This document shows, one piece after another, positions 3,084 through 52,773 of a stretch of DNA of 64,000 nucleotides (its first letter is position 1; the number at the start of each line of letters is the position of its first letter). Where the stretch lies: the NCBI GenBank assembly GCA_016235865.1, contig JACRIK010000003.1, positions 248,001 through 312,000 on the forward strand, in the 5' to 3' direction. The notes beneath the pieces were generated by a model. It saw only the letters and a list, made by a program, of their open reading frames with translations. It did no database searches and was not told the origin of the DNA. Source of the stretch: Planctomycetota bacterium (lineage in GTDB: Bacteria > Planctomycetota > MHYJ01 > JACQXL01). The position numbers and the translations under genes were made by a program.

Positions 3084-3957
3084 ATTAATTTTGGCTTTAC
3101 TGTTTCTGACCGGCATCCTGTTGTCGCCGGTAAACGGCGATACAACTGACACCCTTCTCGACACCGAGGAAACGCCTGACCTGACCACGCCTGATTCGGT
3201 GATTCGCTCTCAGATTTATATGATGGACCGCAAGGTCCAGGCCGTCCAGATTGAGATTCAGACTATTAAGGCGCAACTGATGCAGGCGCTCAAGGATAAT
3301 AAACTAGAGCAGGTCAAGGAACTCACGGACAAAACCAATCAGCTGGAAAAGAATCTCAAGGACACCCGAATAGAACTGGATATTCTCATCAGCAACCACC
3401 AGCGCGACTTTGCCAACCGACCCTGGTGGCGCAAACTGATGATAGAAATCGGTCCGCAATATACCTACTTTGACAACGACCTCAAGATTAACGACGTGGC
3501 CGGCGCGCGACTGCGGATTCATTTGCGCCAGGATACCTTCGGCCGTTACCATTCTTATCCTTTTATCGGAACGTCCGATTCGCCTATCCGCGATATCACC
3601 AGCTCGCCGTTCATATTTGAATACCGCAATTCCATCCACGAGGTGGACGGACAAACCAAGAAAGGCCGGGTGGATACCTACCTGGCCGGCTTCGGCTTGA
3701 GCGGGCAGCTGACCAAAAAATCGTTCATCCATTTAAGCATCCTGGGCGGCGTGCAGGACTATTCCAATATGGAGCCGGAAGATCTCGGGCTGATACTTTC
3801 TTATTCAATGGGACTTCAGCGACGGGTTTCCGATTCGGTCGCCCTGGGACTAATCGCCACCGAAGATTGGGTCATGACCAAGGCCACTCAATCCGACGGC
3901 CAGACGAATTCGTTCTTTAATTTCAGTTTAAACCTTTTAGGCCGGGTTAAGTTTTAA
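3076..3957 (+). CDS. Secreted coiled-coil protein with beta-rich C-terminus
   Basis: I do not recognise a named family. The 293-residue product starts with a clear signal peptide (MNRLILALLFLTGILLSPVNG), so it is exported. Residues about 40-110 form a charged coiled coil (DRKVQAVQIEIQ, LEQVKELTDKTNQLEKN). The remainder is rich in aromatic and alternating polar/hydrophobic residues, as in a small outer-membrane beta-barrel. The ATG at 3076 overlaps the permease stop by eight bases and precedes the signal peptide; a longer in-frame start at 2983 lies inside the permease and is unlikely. Its place directly behind a MacB-type operon suggests an outer-membrane or periplasmic accessory, but this is inference. 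Confidence 0.75.
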   Translation: MNRLILALLFLTGILLSPVNGDTTDTLLDTEETPDLTTPDSVIRSQIYMMDRKVQAVQIEIQTIKAQLMQALKDNKLEQVKELTDKTNQLEKNLKDTRIELDILISNHQRDFANRPWWRKLMIEIGPQYTYFDNDLKINDVAGARLRIHLRQDTFGRYHSYPFIGTSDSPIRDITSSPFIFEYRNSIHEVDGQTKKGRVDTYLAGFGLSGQLTKKSFIHLSILGGVQDYSNMEPEDLGLILSYSMGLQRRVSDSVALGLIATEDWVMTKATQSDGQTNSFFNFSLNLLGRVKF

Positions 3958-43281: not shown

Positions 43282-44511
43282 TTACACCACATATCCAAGA
43301 ATATAGATTACCAACTCAGTAGAATTCGTTCCGCCGACATAGGCCTGCCAGAGCAATGTTCGGTCGGTTGCCACCGGCATCAGAACCGAGCCGCCATTAC
43401 TAATCCCCGGGGCATTAACCGCCGGAGCCATGACCTGCAGGGCATATTCCGCGCCTAACTGCCGAAAGATGTATGCCATCATCCCGCCATCGGTATAGCT
43501 TTGGGTGATACAGGCGATTGAGACAATCACGCCCTTGGTGCCGACCGGGATGATTGTAGACAGGTCAACGCTGGCCGGCTGGGTTGTTGCGGTAATCCCG
43601 CCTTGGTCAAGGGCCGTGGCCGGAACAGGAAGCATAGTCAAAACATCGCCGCCGCCCACGCCCGGCGCTAATTTGGCCTGGGTCACTTGCCCATCGCCGA
43701 TTTCCGCAGTAGCAATTGGCGGTGTCAGCGGTCTGGACGGAACACTAAAGGATAATTTTTCAGGCGTAATCTCGCCGTTGATAATCTTCTCGCGGTTGAT
43801 GCTGTTGGATGCGATTTGCGTATAGCCGACCGTATAATCAGCTATTTTAGCGCCGGTTACGGACTTGTCTTTTATCTTGACCGTCTCTACTGCATTGGTG
43901 GCAAGTTTAGAAACCGTTACTGACGCATCGGTAATCTTCGGCCCAGTTACTGCCAAAGCCCCAATCTCATCTGTAGTCACTGCCGGAGTAATCGGCCTTG
44001 CTACCGAGGGCGGAGTAAATGACAACTTGGCTTGAGTGATTGCTCCGTTGACTATCTTCTCAGTAGTCACGGCGTTGGGGCTCAGTTTCTCTGCAGTGAC
44101 TGCGCCAGGGCCGATTTTGGGCCCGGTGACTGCGCCGAAGATAATCTTTTCCGTGGTCACGCTATCTGTTGCCAACTTACTGCCGATTACTGCCCCGGGC
44201 GCAATCTTGTCCGTAGTCACTGACGCATTGGCAATCTTTTCCGTAATGACGCTATTCACTGCCAGCTTACTGCTCTCTACGGCCGCAGATGCAATCTTCG
44301 GCGTGGTAACAGCCGCATCTTTCAAGCGGGATGTGGTCACCTGTTGCTCGCCGATTTTGTAGGCGGTCACTGCGGCATTGGCGATTTTCTCGGTGGTCAC
44401 AACCTTAGTCCCGAGTTTAACCGTGCTGACTGCGCCGTCTGCTATCTTGGGCGTGGTTACTGCGCCATTAGAAATATGTTCAGTTTTTACTTCGTTGGGT
44501 TGTAGCGCCAT
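43282..44511 (-). CDS. Fibre-like protein with about 27 ten-residue repeats
   Basis: After a short start (MALQPNEVKTEHISNGAVTT) the 409-residue product is a long run of degenerate ten-residue units of the form GAVTTxKIAD, in which T-x-K-I/L alternates with A-V. Such decapeptide repeats occur in phage tail fibres and other trimeric beta-helical fibres. The last 120 residues are non-repetitive (GGDVLTMLPVPATALDQGG...TELVIYILGYVV) and could be a tip or receptor-binding domain. I place the start at ATG 44511; the longer frame runs into a hairpin repeat. The 217-residue gene upstream on the same strand may be its partner. It could be a remnant of a phage or contractile particle. Confidence 0.72.
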   Translation of the reverse strand: MALQPNEVKTEHISNGAVTTPKIADGAVSTVKLGTKVVTTEKIANAAVTAYKIGEQQVTTSRLKDAAVTTPKIASAAVESSKLAVNSVITEKIANASVTTDKIAPGAVIGSKLATDSVTTEKIIFGAVTGPKIGPGAVTAEKLSPNAVTTEKIVNGAITQAKLSFTPPSVARPITPAVTTDEIGALAVTGPKITDASVTVSKLATNAVETVKIKDKSVTGAKIADYTVGYTQIASNSINREKIINGEITPEKLSFSVPSRPLTPPIATAEIGDGQVTQAKLAPGVGGGDVLTMLPVPATALDQGGITATTQPASVDLSTIIPVGTKGVIVSIACITQSYTDGGMMAYIFRQLGAEYALQVMAPAVNAPGISNGGSVLMPVATDRTLLWQAYVGGTNSTELVIYILGYVV

Positions 44512-44530
44512 ATAAAACTCACAATCTTTC

Positions 44531-44594
44531 ACCACGGAGACACGAAGGACACACCCCGAAAGCATTCGGGGCGTGCCTCTGTGCCTCCTGTGGT
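44531..44594. repeat. Hairpin repeat with CCCCGAAAGCATTCGGGG core
   Basis: ACCACGGAGACACGAAGG pairs imperfectly with the CCTCTGTGCCTCCTGTGGT end, around the core CCCCGAA-AGCA-TTCGGGG (44554-44571). The core recurs with one change at 9257-9274 inside a lipoprotein gene. Confidence 0.7.
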
Positions 44595-44600
44595 TGCATT

Positions 44601-45254
44601 TTACGGACTGACCGTGCACTTGGCCGTTTCGCCGAAAGGACCAAAACGAATCCTCTTATCAAACCACTGAGCCCGGTATTCCACATTGGTCGGTTCGGTT
44701 ATGCCCAGATTGTGCAGATAGGGACTGTTGGTATCGTCGGCCACATAGACCCACGGCCCGCTTTCTATGCGATAGAAAATTCTGGCTCCGGCAATGTCTT
44801 TGGGTTTGGCGTTACGTTTTTCATTGGATGGATTGACGCCGAAATGAATCGTAACCTGTCCGCGTTGCTTCCAATCCAGCAACAAAATGGGCGGCGTCAG
44901 ATTCAGCACATAGTCCGGCGAAATCGGGGTCGGATTCGTGTCCCACACGGTAATCCGCAGTGTGGCCCGTTGTCCGTCGGTCAGTTCCGGGTGTTTCTGG
45001 GCCATCCCAGCCACTGGCCTGACCGTATCCTTGGCCGTATCACGTCCGGCATCCTTGTCCTCGGCCGCAGAACGGGCGGCATCCTGGGCGCTCTGGTGCG
45101 CTACATAGAGAACCTGCCAGGCCGGATAGGCGTTGACGGCCGCGGTAATCTGGGCCGCCGGCAGCCCGAGGGCCGTGCCAATCGGGCCGATATTAGCGCT
45201 GAAATTACGCAGCCACTCGTCAAACTCGGCATCCGTTTTCGGGATATAATCCAT
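44601..45254 (-). CDS. Unknown protein beside the fibre-like gene
   Basis: I do not recognise a named family. The 217-residue product starts MDYIPKTDAEFDEWLRNFSA, a start also seen in a widespread family of small bacterial proteins with an N-terminal helical part and a C-terminal fibronectin-like domain. The N-terminal half is helical (AYPAWQVLYVAHQSAQDAARSA). The C-terminal half is beta-rich (VTIHFGV, IFYRIESGPWVYV, VEYRAQWFDKRIRFGPFGE) and resembles an Fn3-like sandwich. It has no signal peptide. Proximity to the fibre-like gene suggests a shared structure. A good AGGAG lies upstream of the ATG. Confidence 0.55.
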   Translation of the reverse strand: MDYIPKTDAEFDEWLRNFSANIGPIGTALGLPAAQITAAVNAYPAWQVLYVAHQSAQDAARSAAEDKDAGRDTAKDTVRPVAGMAQKHPELTDGQRATLRITVWDTNPTPISPDYVLNLTPPILLLDWKQRGQVTIHFGVNPSNEKRNAKPKDIAGARIFYRIESGPWVYVADDTNSPYLHNLGITEPTNVEYRAQWFDKRIRFGPFGETAKCTVSP

Positions 45255-46256: not shown

Positions 46257-46597
46257 TTATTCCATCAGAAAAGGAAAATCCCGAACTCGAAAATAAGTCA
46301 AATTTCCAATCGGGATATTGTCCTTTTCATAGCGACCGATAAATGCCCATGCATCAGGTCGCTCCATATAGACCACCCAAAGAATCAATCCAAGCATACG
46401 CCCGGCCAATTTATCATCTCCTCCGGCCGCTTTTTCATAAATTACCTGACGAGAAGTATCGTTGGGCGTTTTTTCTCGTCATTCATGCTGTCTTTAACCG
46501 CTTCAACCTCTTCTTTAGTAAGACGAGAGCACATTAAATTATATATCTCTGGATACGGTATGTAATCAATGACCTTACGATCAGTGGTAATCAGCAT
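46257..46597 (-). pseudogene. Frameshifted, C-terminally truncated paralogue of the HTH gene at 47927
   Basis: The minus strand reads MLITTDRKVIDYIPYPEIYN and so on to ...EVEAVKDSMNDEKK, then a stop. In the next frame the homology resumes as RQVIYEKAAGG...LGLILWVVYMERPD and GRYEKDNIPIGNLTYFRV, ending soon after. The intact gene at 47927-48442 has the same sequence of motifs (RVIYKKAARR, FGLIVWVVFMERGD, GRYEKDKMPIQKLTYFRV). The shift falls at a run of six T on the plus strand (46469-46474); one more base would restore the frame, so a sequencing error is possible. The HTH part of the paralogue is missing. The start overlaps the HEAT-protein stop. Confidence 0.78.
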
Positions 46598-47848: not shown

Positions 47849-47885
47849 AATGATACAGAAGGGAAGTGACAGGGTAGGACACGGG
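47849..47885 (-). promoter_or_regulatory. Promoter cassette upstream of the HEAT gene
   Basis: On the minus strand the block from CCCGTGTCCTACCCTGTCAC leads into TTCCCTTCTG. Within it TGTCAC and CATAGT are 17 bases apart. The same block, at the same distance (78-79 bases) from the start codon, lies upstream of the HTH gene (48520-48539). A short AACGG/CCGTT dyad in the leader (47818-47835) has an ATTAGG/CCTAAT counterpart there. Confidence 0.55.
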
Positions 47886-47926: not shown

Positions 47927-48442
47927 TTACTTATGCCTTTTACAACGTTTGCGTCTATGATTCACTGCGTTGACCAGAATCCGGCTAACGCGTGATTCGG
48001 ATATATTCAGCACCCTTCCTATTTCTTTCATAGTTAAATTACCGTAAAAATAAAGCCGTGGCGCGAGTTTATCTGGTTTGTTCAATGCCTTGTTCGGAGA
48101 CACACGAAAATATGTCAGTTTTTGTATTGGCATTTTGTCTTTTTCATAACGCCCAAAGGACCATGTATCGCCACGTTCCATAAAGACCACCCAGACAATT
48201 AATCCGAACATTAACGAGACATCATCATTATTTCGCCGGGCGGCTTTTTTATAAATCACCCGGAATGGATTATGTAGCGGCCTCACCCCGGCTGTGAGTA
48301 TTTCGTTATCGTCAATCATTTGATTTAATGCCTTTTTGACGGCATTAAACTCATCATCAGAAAGTCGTTTGCGCATTAAATTATATATTGCCCGGTGCGG
48401 AATTCTCCGAATTACTTTTCCGGTATTAATGGAAACCAGCAT
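47927..48442 (-). CDS. HTH protein with sigma region 4-like C-terminus
   Basis: The 171-residue product has an unfamiliar N-terminal domain (RAIYNLMRKRLSDDEFNAVKK, RVIYKKAARR, FGLIVWVVFMERGD, GRYEKDKMPIQ) and ends with LTMKEIGRVLNISESRVSRIL. That segment strongly resembles the DNA-binding helix-turn-helix of sigma factor region 4 in FliA/RpoF-like proteins (LKEIGxxLxVSESRVSQI). It lacks region 2, so it is not a complete sigma factor. It may be a regulator or an RNA-polymerase-targeting factor. The start has an ideal AAGGAGGT ribosome-binding site. A frameshifted paralogue lies at 46257-46597. Confidence 0.7.
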   Translation of the reverse strand: MLVSINTGKVIRRIPHRAIYNLMRKRLSDDEFNAVKKALNQMIDDNEILTAGVRPLHNPFRVIYKKAARRNNDDVSLMFGLIVWVVFMERGDTWSFGRYEKDKMPIQKLTYFRVSPNKALNKPDKLAPRLYFYGNLTMKEIGRVLNISESRVSRILVNAVNHRRKRCKRHK

Positions 48443-48500: not shown

Positions 48501-48539
48501 TATACTACACCAGAAGCAAGTGACAGGGTGGGACACGGG
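48501..48539 (-). promoter_or_regulatory. Promoter cassette upstream of the HTH gene
   Basis: The minus-strand block CCCGTGTCCCACCCTGTCAC followed by TTGCTTCTG matches the one upstream of the HEAT gene. TGTCAC and TATAGT are 17 bases apart. The shared block is 78 bases from the ATG. Confidence 0.55.
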
Positions 48540-48572: not shown

Positions 48573-49184
48573 CTAAACCGGGTGCAACCTGTAATCTTTC
48601 AGTTCATATATACCGGATCGATCTAAAACATATTTTTTAAAATTTCCTTTTGGGTACGGGATCCCAACCATAAGATAACGAAATTTATGTCTACTCGGGA
48701 AAGCGTTGGGACACATAGCACATTCTTTAACTACTTGTAACAACCAATCTTCCCCCCTGTTTCTGCTTTTGTTATTATACCAGACTACCATTAAACGATG
48801 ATCAGCAATACCAACAGTCAATTTTTGAAAATCATATAAAATGTCATCTTTCTTTCCCCATTCTATTTCTGCAATCAGAGCAAGCCCCCTAAATTTCTTC
48901 CACCCCTCTTTTTTATTTCCCCCTTCTTTACTCCAACATAAATCATATAACCATTCACCCCAGTGGGCGTTTAGTTTTTTACAAGGAGCCGCACATATAC
49001 ATATTTTGTATTGGTTTTTGTGTTGCCTCATTAAATTAAGGCGCCGGCTTTTCCCTAATATCGTTAAGCATTTTTTGACTGTTTTTGTCCATTTCTTATC
49101 CTTATCTTTGGTTGGTCTCAAATTGGTTGTTGTATATTTCTCTATATGTTTAAAAATTTCGGATTCGACTTTAGATAGCTTCAT
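48573..49184 (-). CDS. Unknown protein with PD-(D/E)XK nuclease-like pattern
   Basis: I do not recognise a named family. The 203-residue protein has a basic N-terminal half (residues 25-55, many Lys). The centre reads EWLYDLCW, then LALIAEIEWG (Glu106, Glu108) and ILYDFQKLTVGIADHRLMVVW. The order Asp - strand with Glu-X-Glu - Asp-Phe-X-Lys-Leu is that of restriction-endonuclease-like folds in which a short Glu-rich strand is followed by a helix with the conserved Lys. Several Cys are also present (63, 68, 83, 155, 158). The gene is AT-rich and is preceded by a fragment of a WYL regulator gene that supplies its ribosome-binding site (GGAGG at 49190-49194). Confidence 0.55.
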   Translation of the reverse strand: MKLSKVESEIFKHIEKYTTTNLRPTKDKDKKWTKTVKKCLTILGKSRRLNLMRQHKNQYKICICAAPCKKLNAHWGEWLYDLCWSKEGGNKKEGWKKFRGLALIAEIEWGKKDDILYDFQKLTVGIADHRLMVVWYNNKSRNRGEDWLLQVVKECAMCPNAFPSRHKFRYLMVGIPYPKGNFKKYVLDRSGIYELKDYRLHPV

Positions 49185-49185
49185 A

Positions 49186-49283
49186 TTAACCTCCTTTATA
49201 CTGTTTCACTATACCCTGGCTTATTTTTACTATCTGGTCAGCTAATTGTTTCGGCTTAATCACCTTTACCTCATCGCCCATTT
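49186..49283 (-). pseudogene. 3' remnant of a WYL regulator gene
   Basis: This 98-base stretch encodes MGDEVKVIKPKQLADQIVKI followed by SQGIVKQYKGG and a stop. It is the counterpart of the C-terminus of the complete WYL gene (GDGVKVLKPKQLVDNMVKIS and then QGIVKQYKKFG) at 51763-51866. The plus strands match over about 86 bases with some 14 differences. No other part of the gene is present. Confidence 0.8.
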
Positions 49284-49316
49284 AAAACTACGGGCTGTCC
49301 CTCACGGGATGCGTTG

Positions 49317-50813
49317 CTACTGTCCCGCCTGTCCAAACTCATGGCAAAGGTTGCGGTCAATGTGGACCATAGCCAGGCAGTCATCTTCGTTATATTTAAG
49401 AACCTTGTTTATTTTATTTTTATCTCCGTCCTTGAGGTATTCCCAATACAAGACCATAGATTCAAATGCCCCTACTTCTTTCTGTCGCCAGTTAAACCCT
49501 AATGCCGGTGCCACATGCTTAATGGAATATGTCGGAGCAGGCATATAGACCTGCTTTTTAAGAACATCCATTAAATCAACGCATCGCTTCATTAGGTTAT
49601 TTAAGTCCGTCGTGAGTTCCGGATGCCGTGTAATTACTTTTTTCATAGTACCTGTTTCAAAACTATACCAGTGGTAGAGGCAATCGTTTTCATAATTACC
49701 AAGGTAATCTATAAATTGCCTGAAAATCTTGGTTTCATCCCTTACCCCTTTGCCAAGGAAATAGACGAACTTATCTCTTGACTCGTCCCAGACGCCAATC
49801 AAATAAACATGAGGTGGTTCAGTGGGATGAACCGCATCAGAGGTCTCAAAATCAAAATAGAAATTCCGTTTCCCACGAGGAATAGATAGTTTTACTCCCG
49901 GCTCTATAATCGGTTTATTATGTTTATACGCCTGAGCGTTGTAATAAATTCTTGTTCCCTGATTCTGACCCAATTCCTTTACGAGTTTTTCTAATTTGAA
50001 GGAATACAGGTCTTTTATAGAGGAGATATTAATTTTTTTCTGTAATTTAGGTCTTGTTCCGGCGCCGACATTATATAATAAAGTCAGGTCCATAGAATCC
50101 TTGAGTATTTTATTGGCGTAAACACGCCAAGGTGATTCTGTAGAATCCATCTTCCCGGGTATGGGCTTGTTTTTGCCGTCCCTAATTTGCTTCCATAGGT
50201 TAACATAATGATTAAATTTATCTATAATTTTTTTATTATAAGCCACGTTTTCCCGGCCTTCCTTTAAAACAACCGTAACCTCTTTTGAAGCATAACCCTG
50301 TATTGCCTCAAGCATTTTATTGTAGCATACGGCTTGAAAGGAATGATAATCCTGCAGGTTCTTTGACCTTTTGATTTCTATGACACGGTAATGATATTTG
50401 CCCAAATCAGACGGGGCGTCGTCGCTACGCACCAGCAAATCCCCCTTGCCATACATCTCTTCGGACAGCAACCAGAGATTGGGCTGGTAGATAACCTGTG
50501 TGCCTTTAAGCATTAATTCCATGGTTTGCTTAAGCGCCTTAAGTCCCCATTTTTCCTCTATTTTAATTGCATCGGGATAATTCTTTTCAACCCATTGCTT
50601 TTCATATTCCGCGCCACGTTGCATCTTAATCTCTGAATACCTATCAACTTCTTCCACCATTTCAGATTCAGGGGCGTGGAAGCTGCACCAGACAAAGAAA
50701 GGGTCATTAATAAGTTGGTAGAGGATGGAGGGCGAGAAGGTTTGACCGCTGACCGGGCTTTTATTATTTGTCGCCCTTCGTAAAAGTGTTGCTAACGTTA
50801 TATCCTGACTCAT
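49317..50813 (-). CDS. TM0106-type RecB-like nuclease fused to RNase H-like exonuclease domain
   Basis: The 498-residue protein has a Cas4/RecB-type nuclease region at about 110-170 (Asp125, the strand VIEIKRSK with Glu146 and Lys148, and FQAVCYN, the QxxxY motif). A ribonuclease H-like 3'-5' exonuclease domain follows from about 315, with DFETSDAV (DxE motif), a central Asp in CVDLMDV and NEDDCLAMVHI (ExoIII motif). This combination is that of the TM0106/YprB-like family of putative nucleases, seen in helicase-associated and CRISPR-adjacent contexts. The Fe-S cysteines of true Cas4 are absent. Upstream and downstream genes are also nuclease-like, and no helicase is adjacent. Confidence 0.85.
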   Translation of the reverse strand: MSQDITLATLLRRATNNKSPVSGQTFSPSILYQLINDPFFVWCSFHAPESEMVEEVDRYSEIKMQRGAEYEKQWVEKNYPDAIKIEEKWGLKALKQTMELMLKGTQVIYQPNLWLLSEEMYGKGDLLVRSDDAPSDLGKYHYRVIEIKRSKNLQDYHSFQAVCYNKMLEAIQGYASKEVTVVLKEGRENVAYNKKIIDKFNHYVNLWKQIRDGKNKPIPGKMDSTESPWRVYANKILKDSMDLTLLYNVGAGTRPKLQKKINISSIKDLYSFKLEKLVKELGQNQGTRIYYNAQAYKHNKPIIEPGVKLSIPRGKRNFYFDFETSDAVHPTEPPHVYLIGVWDESRDKFVYFLGKGVRDETKIFRQFIDYLGNYENDCLYHWYSFETGTMKKVITRHPELTTDLNNLMKRCVDLMDVLKKQVYMPAPTYSIKHVAPALGFNWRQKEVGAFESMVLYWEYLKDGDKNKINKVLKYNEDDCLAMVHIDRNLCHEFGQAGQ

Positions 50814-50938
50814 TTAAAATAAGAGAATTTCCTTTAACATTGTCACCGTTTTTCTTTAAGTTAGGTGCAATTCCGACGCCAAAATACCTAACTACTTCGT
50901 CCCCTTGTTCGTTCCCATCATTCCCCATCCTATTTTGT

Positions 50939-51586
50939 TTATCTGCGTTTCCATCCTTCAAGAGATGTTGACAGGATAAAACGATTTTTACCCATTTTAA
51001 ACAACTTTGTCAGAACATACGATATTTTAATATTTCTATGCTTGTTTTGCAAATCGGTAAACCCCTGAAATACTCTTTGTGCAATCCTCGGCGCGATGAT
51101 GATAAACTTAACTCCTCTAATGCTATTGTGTTTTCCAATAATTTTGTCCAAAAGCCATAAACCGTCTTGTTCGTGTTTAATCATCATTGATACGCCTGGC
51201 ATAAACCGGTGCTTACTCTTATTGCTTTCTATACAACTTTTCTTGTACTTATCTATTTCCTTTCCATGTTCTCTCTTGCTTAGTTTTTTTATTTTTTCCC
51301 ATTGCTTGCGTACTTGGTCCACTATCTTGACTGGAACAGATTTGACTTTCGCCTCGCAAATAACCAGGTGTCCTGTTTTATCAACCCCAAATAAATCAAC
51401 GTTCTTAAACTCACGTCCGATCCATGTAACATCTTTTGTATTGGGGATTAGCCTCTCGATGTTTTCCCGAATGATTCTTTTTAAATATTCTTCATTGGCA
51501 CTCTTGTCTTTTTCTTCTTTTACACTGTTGCCTTCTTTTAAAGAAAACAACCTGCTCTCAAGTAATTTTGCTTTTATTTTCGCCAT
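50939..51586 (-). CDS. PD-(D/E)XK endonuclease-like protein (NucS/DUF91-like core)
   Basis: The 215-residue protein has a basic helical N-terminus and the core VDLFGVDKTGHLVICEAKVKS, with Asp64, Glu78 and Lys80 in the spacing of PD-(D/E)XK nucleases. The outline (IGREFKNVDL, then E-A-K, then VDQVRKQW) resembles the C-terminal nuclease domain of NucS and of Type IV or Type II-like restriction enzymes. I use the ATG at 51586, which has AAAGGAG at good spacing. It lies between the WYL regulator and the TM0106-type nuclease. Confidence 0.75.
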   Translation of the reverse strand: MAKIKAKLLESRLFSLKEGNSVKEEKDKSANEEYLKRIIRENIERLIPNTKDVTWIGREFKNVDLFGVDKTGHLVICEAKVKSVPVKIVDQVRKQWEKIKKLSKREHGKEIDKYKKSCIESNKSKHRFMPGVSMMIKHEQDGLWLLDKIIGKHNSIRGVKFIIIAPRIAQRVFQGFTDLQNKHRNIKISYVLTKLFKMGKNRFILSTSLEGWKRR

Positions 51587-51762
51587 AAATATCTCCTTTA
51601 AATAAAATTTCAGCAAGCCACGCCTTTTCGGAGATTGTCCCGAGTTTAGTTTAAATTAGGTTAGCCAATATTAAGCCCCAATATTCATCGGGACTCCGTT
51701 CACACTACGCAATCTTCTTTGCCCTGTCAATATTTTTAAGGTTGGTAACACCCGTTATCCTC

Positions 51763-52773
51763 TTATCCGAATTTCTTATACTGTTTCACTATACCCTGGC
51801 TTATTTTTACCATATTATCAACTAACTGTTTCGGCTTTAGCACCTTCACTCCATCGCCCATTGGCAGAAGCCAGCATATCAGGTCTCCTAATCCGGCTAC
51901 GGTCAGGGTCATTTCTATTTCACCCTTGGGTAGTTTCTTTATTTTCTGAGACGGGTGCCATTGGCGCTCGGTTATCCATTGCGCATATTCCTTGCTAAAC
52001 CTCAACACCACATCCTGCAACTTGCCTTCGTGCGAGATGCCGAAGCTTTCATCTAGGAATCTAGTCACCTCAAATTCCTCGCCATCTTTGTCTTTGAGTA
52101 GGGTAAATTTGTCGTCCGACACCTCAACTAATTTGATGCGTTGGATTGCAAAATTTCGCAGCGCCCGGCGCAGTTCGCTATATCCCACGCAGTATAATCC
52201 GCCTTCATAAAAAGACAGGGCATAGGGATGGAATAAGTGCTTGTCGGTTTTATCCCGGCCGTATGCCAAATAGGTGATATGGCATTTCCTCTTTTCCCGC
52301 GATGCCCGGTTCAATTTCTCTATGATAGAGTTAAAATTCCGGTAATCAGTCAAAGCCCCCAGTTTAGGAACGACAGTTTCCTGCGAATAGAGGATGAAAT
52401 CTATGGCATTAACCGGCAGGGTCTTATGGATTTTATCCAGGGCGGAATCTATGCCCTCTTTGAAAGGCGTGCCTTGAAGCGCGCTTAATAGACCCTTGCT
52501 GAAATAAAGGGACATCAGTTCGGTCAGGGTGAACGGGACACTGGGCGTGCGGGCTCCCTTTGTCAGAAGCCATTTTATTTTCTCGCCTATCTTCTCCTTT
52601 TCCAAGGGGAAGCCGGCGTTCTGCAAGACATTCAGGTCGCGATAAATAGTCCTTTTGCTGTAGCCGATTTCGTGCGCCAGTTCTTCAGCCGTGATGCCAT
52701 AATGAAGCATATCCAGCCGCTTTAATATCTTCCACTGCCGGACGAATTGCCTGCCTCGTTCTTCTGTTTTCAT
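51763..52773 (-). CDS. WYL-domain transcriptional regulator
   Basis: The 336-residue regulator has an N-terminal DeoR-like winged helix (LDMLHYGITAEELAHEIGYS and KRTIYRDLNVLQ), a long linker, and a WYL domain (about 160-230) with YLAYGRDKTDKHLFHPYALS and GLYCVGYSELRRALRNFAI. A WCX C-terminal part follows. WYL proteins bind nucleic-acid-derived ligands and often control defence operons. It is the first gene of the AT-rich cluster 48.5-52.8 kb, and its C-terminus is duplicated at 49186-49283. Confidence 0.9.
   Translation of the reverse strand: MKTEERGRQFVRQWKILKRLDMLHYGITAEELAHEIGYSKRTIYRDLNVLQNAGFPLEKEKIGEKIKWLLTKGARTPSVPFTLTELMSLYFSKGLLSALQGTPFKEGIDSALDKIHKTLPVNAIDFILYSQETVVPKLGALTDYRNFNSIIEKLNRASREKRKCHITYLAYGRDKTDKHLFHPYALSFYEGGLYCVGYSELRRALRNFAIQRIKLVEVSDDKFTLLKDKDGEEFEVTRFLDESFGISHEGKLQDVVLRFSKEYAQWITERQWHPSQKIKKLPKGEIEMTLTVAGLGDLICWLLPMGDGVKVLKPKQLVDNMVKISQGIVKQYKKFG

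What the first reader, a model, noticed from the sequence alone, without database searches (positions are those of the whole stretch)
48573..52773. Candidate defence module: WYL regulator with three nuclease-like proteins
In one minus-strand, AT-rich block lie a WYL regulator, a NucS/DUF91-like PD-(D/E)XK protein, a TM0106-type nuclease with RecB-like and RNase H-like domains, and a further PD-(D/E)XK-like protein. WYL regulators control CBASS, BREX and other systems. I know of no described system with this exact set. The composition and a truncated WYL copy inside it indicate horizontal origin.
Basis: inference. Interest (0 to 1): 0.78.

Follow-up and report, generated by a model that had tools for sequence, protein, structure and literature searches.

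The report
Patchwork islet of nuclease-like genes
In a Planctomycetota bacterium, a horizontally acquired stretch of DNA holds a WYL regulator beside three nuclease-like genes; the four genes do not travel together in other genomes, so it is most likely a patchwork of genes against foreign DNA rather than one new defence system.

Summary
The four ORFs are real, all on the minus strand, in a 36-47% GC block beside housekeeping genes of 54-56% GC. The WYL regulator and the TM0106 RecB/RNase H nuclease pass curated cut-offs. The 50939 protein (N225 here) is NucS-C-like only below cut-off but keeps a D/E/K triad. The 48573 protein (R203) belongs to a family absent from Pfam, NCBIfam, PHROGs and PADLOC; I found members in a Dnd-containing island, two viral contigs and a plasmid. 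It looks PD-(D/E)XK-like by motif only. The set is not co-conserved: N225, TM0106 and R203 do not adjoin WYL in 80 related WYL loci, and N225 and R203 have no detected relative in 391 other genomes of the phylum. An in-frame tail of a second WYL gene lies directly before R203, so R203 once followed another WYL copy and the block is a recombination mosaic. Best reading: a composite accessory islet of anti-mobile-element nucleases. Weak hints of more: R203 adjoins a RecB/RNase H protein in one distant genome, and a PDC-S11 protein lies near a broken TM0106 gene in another. Interest is modest; the uncatalogued R203 family is the newest element.

The parts
51763..52773 (-). WYL-WCX transcriptional regulator with N-terminal HTH_11 (336 aa); only full copy of this kind in the genome
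50939..51586 (-). N225/N215: NucS-C/PDC-S11-like PD-(D/E)XK protein (215 aa from the ATG; 225 aa from an upstream TTG at 51616); putative catalytic D64, E78, K80 (215-aa numbering)
49317..50813 (-). Stand-alone TM0106-family RecB-like + RNase H-like nuclease (498 aa); D125, E146, K148, Q160 and D321, E323 motifs present
49186..49282 (-). In-frame 3' tail of a second WYL gene, ending in TAA next to the R203 start; recombination scar (aligned repeat 49196-49282)
48573..49184 (-). R203: member of an uncatalogued family (GEWxxDxxW ... ExEW ... DFxKL), PD-(D/E)XK-like by motif only
47927..48442 (-). 171-aa protein with C-terminal sigma-70 region 4-like HTH; neighbour in the same AT-rich block, not part of the claimed set
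46284..46597 (-). Frameshifted remnant of a paralogue of the 47927 gene (60% aa identity over 55 residues)

Best explanation
A composite, horizontally acquired accessory islet beside housekeeping genes, built stepwise by recombination, holding three unrelated nuclease-like proteins and one WYL regulator of the ligand-binding type. Shown: the genes, the WYL scar, the patchwork composition, the lack of co-conservation in the genomes searched, and R203 relatives in a Dnd-containing island, viral contigs and a plasmid. Inferred: N225 and TM0106 (and less surely R203) act independently as nucleases on foreign or damaged DNA, and WYL may control the gene or genes just behind it. R203 was probably once translationally coupled to another WYL copy, since its start codon abuts the stop codon of the WYL tail.
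For: Uneven composition: GC3 is 0.57 in WYL, 0.44 in TM0106, 0.38 in N225, 0.34 in R203, against 0.69-0.70 in flanking genes. WYL-tail scar. None of the five available contigs of relatives that carry the neighbouring TPR/ligase gene shows a hit to the four genes, though three of these contigs end soon after it. An R203 relative lies next to a DUF2779 RecB/RNase H gene, about 1 kb from a PDC-S11+RAMA gene and 12-18 kb from dndE, an AAA ATPase, a PAPS-reductase protein and dndB. Other R203 members are in two viral contigs and in plasmid pALVIN02, which also carries a type I restriction gene. Two helicase-sized (about 1140 aa) TM0106 proteins lie near brxL or beside an McrC-family gene.
Against: No experiment. 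TM0106's closest relative (G010, 43%) and the second copy in this genome show no obvious defence neighbours in the few kb read. N225 misses NucS cut-offs; R203's nuclease nature rests on motifs that are degenerate in the plasmid paralogues. The genes could be decaying passengers.
Confidence: 0.55

Rival explanations
1. Genuine four-gene, WYL-regulated anti-phage operon that is simply rare: WYL senses infection and derepresses three nucleases.
For: Same strand, contiguous genes; WYL tail abutting R203; RecB/RNase H and PDC-S11-like genes also near the R203 relative in a distant genome.
Against: No co-conservation in 80 WYL loci, in the phylum sample or in 50 WYL genomes; intergenic gaps of 125-176 bp; differing gene composition; N225 and the G404 PDC-S11 protein share no pairwise similarity.
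Confidence: 0.12
2. Neutral passengers: genes accumulated and decaying at an insertion-prone slot, with no joint or current function.
For: WYL tail and frameshifted 47927 paralogue in the same block; a broken TM0106 gene in G052.
Against: All four main ORFs are open; N225 and TM0106 keep their catalytic motifs, and N225 and R203 have clear ribosome-binding sites.
Confidence: 0.2
3. DNA repair or replication accessory genes rather than defence (NucS-like mismatch or flap processing, RecB/RNase H end processing).
For: NucS-C similarity of N225; TM0106 carries an HHH-like region matching Y-family polymerase models, one of them below cut-off.
Against: Patchy distribution, AT-rich horizontal origin, and R203 relatives on mobile elements and in a defence-type island.
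Confidence: 0.13

Closest known systems
TM0106 family RecB-like putative nuclease (TIGR03491)
   Same: 211 bits against cut-off 97.45; RecB-like and RNase H-like motifs both present
   Different: Stand-alone 498 aa; three of four plasmid members looked at are about 1140 aa, some near BREX or McrBC-type genes; function of the family unproven
PDC-S11 (PADLOC phage defence candidate) / NucS C-terminal domain
   Same: D-x(13)-E-A-K motif aligns to NucS 158-197 (2VLD), weakly; PADLOC E 3e-6
   Different: Below NucS cut-offs; PDC-S11 match covers about 100 of 358 profile positions; no NucS N-terminal domain detected
WYL regulators of defence systems (BrxR of BREX, PMC9122589; sll7009 of CRISPR-Cas I-D, PMC4012209)
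   Same: HTH-WYL-WCX architecture; located upstream of nuclease-like genes
   Different: The nearest WYL relatives (25-38% identity) have no conserved defence partner in the loci compared; the shared Geomonas neighbourhood looks like housekeeping
BamHI-type PD-(D/E)XK enzymes with an E-x-E third motif (from memory)
   Same: R203 has D81 ... E106-x-E108
   Different: No credible sequence match in the PDB; no confident model

Membership tests
WYL-WCX transcriptional regulators | HTH plus WYL plus WCX domains above Pfam cut-offs | tested here: met
TM0106 family (TIGR03491) | Score above the curated cut-off with RecB-like and RNase H-like regions | tested here: met
Endonuclease NucS | Score above NucS_C (Pfam) or NucS (NCBIfam) cut-off | tested here: not met
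   16.5 vs 24 and 20.8 vs 216 bits
PDC-S11 | Full-length match to PADLOC PDC-S11 models | tested here: inconclusive
   E 3e-6 but residues 29-128 only, 24.5 bits
PD-(D/E)XK nuclease superfamily (R203) | Fold and conserved D ... (D/E)-x-(K/E) site | tested here: inconclusive
   Motif in four members, degenerate in two; model pLDDT 42
WYL-controlled defence system | WYL gene co-conserved with the same effector genes | tested here: not met
   80 WYL loci; 50 genomes
WYL-controlled defence system | WYL binds the promoter and regulates the neighbours | not testable with these tools
   needs EMSA or RNA-seq

The most novel reading that the evidence does not exclude
R203 is a new PD-(D/E)XK-like nuclease family carried by mobile elements and, together with a RecB/RNase H protein and a PDC-S11-like nuclease, forms a recurrent anti-phage nuclease set that different regulators (WYL here, a small HTH in a viral contig) pick up by duplication of the regulator gene.
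Probability: 0.12. Interest if true: 0.6.

Novelty: new member of a known kind. Interest (0 to 1): 0.32.

Why it matters
It shows that a same-strand row of nuclease-like genes behind a WYL regulator need not be a system; the scar shows assembly in steps. The uncatalogued R203 family, with members in a Dnd-containing island, viral contigs and a plasmid, is a concrete candidate for testing that current defence-gene libraries miss.

Tried and rejected
N225 and R203 against phages and plasmids by tblastn: no match. Viral contigs with R203, N225 and TM0106 queries: nothing. R203 in genome contigs: nothing. The R203/G404 alignment in viral contigs: nothing; a hand-made DNA pattern for the EW...DFxKL motif then gave two real members after profile filtering. 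attC/integron idea: the inverted repeat before the TM0106 gene has the wrong polarity for attC (read by eye). The motif CCGTGTCCYACCCTGTCACTT occurs only twice in the genome, before two neighbouring genes, so it is a local duplication, not a dispersed repeat. Promoter and terminator scans were near chance levels. Literature searches for TM0106 and DUF2779 gave nothing relevant.

Full report
What is there. Four open reading frames lie on the minus strand at 48573-52773. The first in reading order is the WYL regulator, 51763-52773, with HTH_11, WYL and WCX domains above Pfam cut-offs. Next comes N225, 50939-51616; the ATG at 51586 behind AAAGGAG is the better start and gives 215 residues. Its D64, E78 and K80 lie in a stretch that aligns with residues 158-197 of NucS 2VLD, a weak match, E 0.23. 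NucS models score below their cut-offs, and PADLOC's PDC-S11 is hit over about 100 residues, E 3e-6. Third is a stand-alone TM0106-family protein, 49317-50813, well above the TIGR03491 cut-off, with RecB-like (D125, E146, K148, Q160) and RNase H-like (D321, E323) motifs. Last is R203, 48573-49184, without any family match above noise.

Host and origin. GC is 35.8% in N225 and R203, 40.8% in TM0106 and 47% in WYL, against 54-56% in the flanking TPR/ligase and FabH genes; GC3 runs 0.34-0.57 inside against 0.69-0.70 outside. Five contigs of relatives that carry the TPR/ligase gene show no hit to the four genes; in G003, G008 and G005 other genes follow it, in G001 and G002 the contig ends.

The scar. 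87 bp at 49196-49282 match the end of the WYL gene at 51776-51862 with 87% identity. The tail is in frame, ends in TAA at 49186-49188, and R203's ATG starts at 49184 (sequence). The genome has no other match of this kind. So R203 once stood directly behind another, close WYL copy, and N225 plus TM0106 now sit between two WYL ends. The neighbouring 47927 gene also has a frameshifted paralogue at 46284-46597, so a broken copy of a regulator-like gene marks this block twice.

Co-conservation. Relatives of the WYL protein (25-38% identity) were found in 80 loci from many phyla. tblastn of N225, TM0106 and R203 against those loci (up to about 21 kb each) gave one TM0106-type hit at E below 1e-5, about 7 kb from its WYL gene (L096), and nothing for N225 or R203 at E below 0.1. 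I did not annotate every gene in the 80 loci, so a WYL partner of another family could have been missed. Among 27 of the best loci, gene neighbours were shared mainly within five Geomonas genomes, and these look like housekeeping genes. N225 and R203 had no relative in 391 other genomes of the phylum; these are single-sequence searches and would miss distant relatives. N225 had none in 50 WYL-bearing genomes, R203 one.

What that one relative shows. In the Deltaproteobacterium OFTM107 the R203 relative (42% over the matched stretch) lies about 120 bp before a DUF2779 RecB/RNase H protein on the same strand; a PDC-S11+RAMA gene lies about 1 kb away on the other strand, and dndE, an AAA ATPase, a PAPS-reductase protein and dndB lie on the same contig, 12-18 kb off. 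The DUF2779 protein is homologous to the window's TM0106 protein (pairwise E 5e-9); the window's N225 and the PDC-S11 protein there show no pairwise similarity. In G052 a TM0106 fragment with a stop codon has a PDC-S11 protein about 0.9 kb downstream. I did not systematically inspect the other TM0106 loci for PDC-S11 genes, so no rate of association is claimed. Both neighbourhoods may simply be mixed defence islands.

The R203 family. A DNA pattern for the motif, followed by a profile, gave two further members, in viral contigs L270 and L197; plasmid pALVIN02 carries two adjacent copies. The six sequences share the W..D..W element, and four of them also ExEW ... DFxKL. None matches Pfam, and PHROGs gives only weak single-member hits. 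In L270 the member overlaps a small HTH gene, and a 30-bp repeat at 97% identity marks a second, similar HTH gene 2.5 kb away, a pattern like the WYL scar; the two HTH proteins were compared by eye only.

Reading. The block is best explained as a patchwork accessory islet. That its proteins act against foreign DNA is inferred from nuclease motifs and from where relatives lie; nothing here shows activity. A four-gene WYL-controlled system is not supported by the comparisons made. Structure prediction did not help.

Noticed in passing
46284-46597 (-): Frameshifted remnant of a paralogue of the sigma-region-4-like gene 47927-48442.
   Followed up: partly
47866-47884 and 48520-48538 (-): Two copies of CCGTGTCCYACCCTGTCAC, each upstream of a gene start; the only two matches found in the genome.
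   Followed up: partly
49285-49327 (-): About 42 bp at the TM0106/WYL-tail boundary recur at 88% at G000:C3:61926-61967.
   Followed up: partly
L030 1285-2751 (G000:C3:357639-358853): Second TM0106-family gene in the same genome (29% identity), not in an obvious defence context.
   Followed up: partly
L138, L140: Defence-type island in Deltaproteobacterium OFTM107: dndB, dndE, an AAA ATPase, PDC-S11+RAMA, DUF2779, HNH and GIY-YIG genes, and an R203 relative.
   Followed up: partly
L270 1-3323: Viral contig in which an R203 member overlaps a small HTH gene; 30-bp direct repeat at 807-836 and 3294-3323.
   Followed up: partly
43282-44619 (-): Protein made of repeated TTEKIAN/TTPKIA units, tail-fibre-like by eye.
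   Followed up: no
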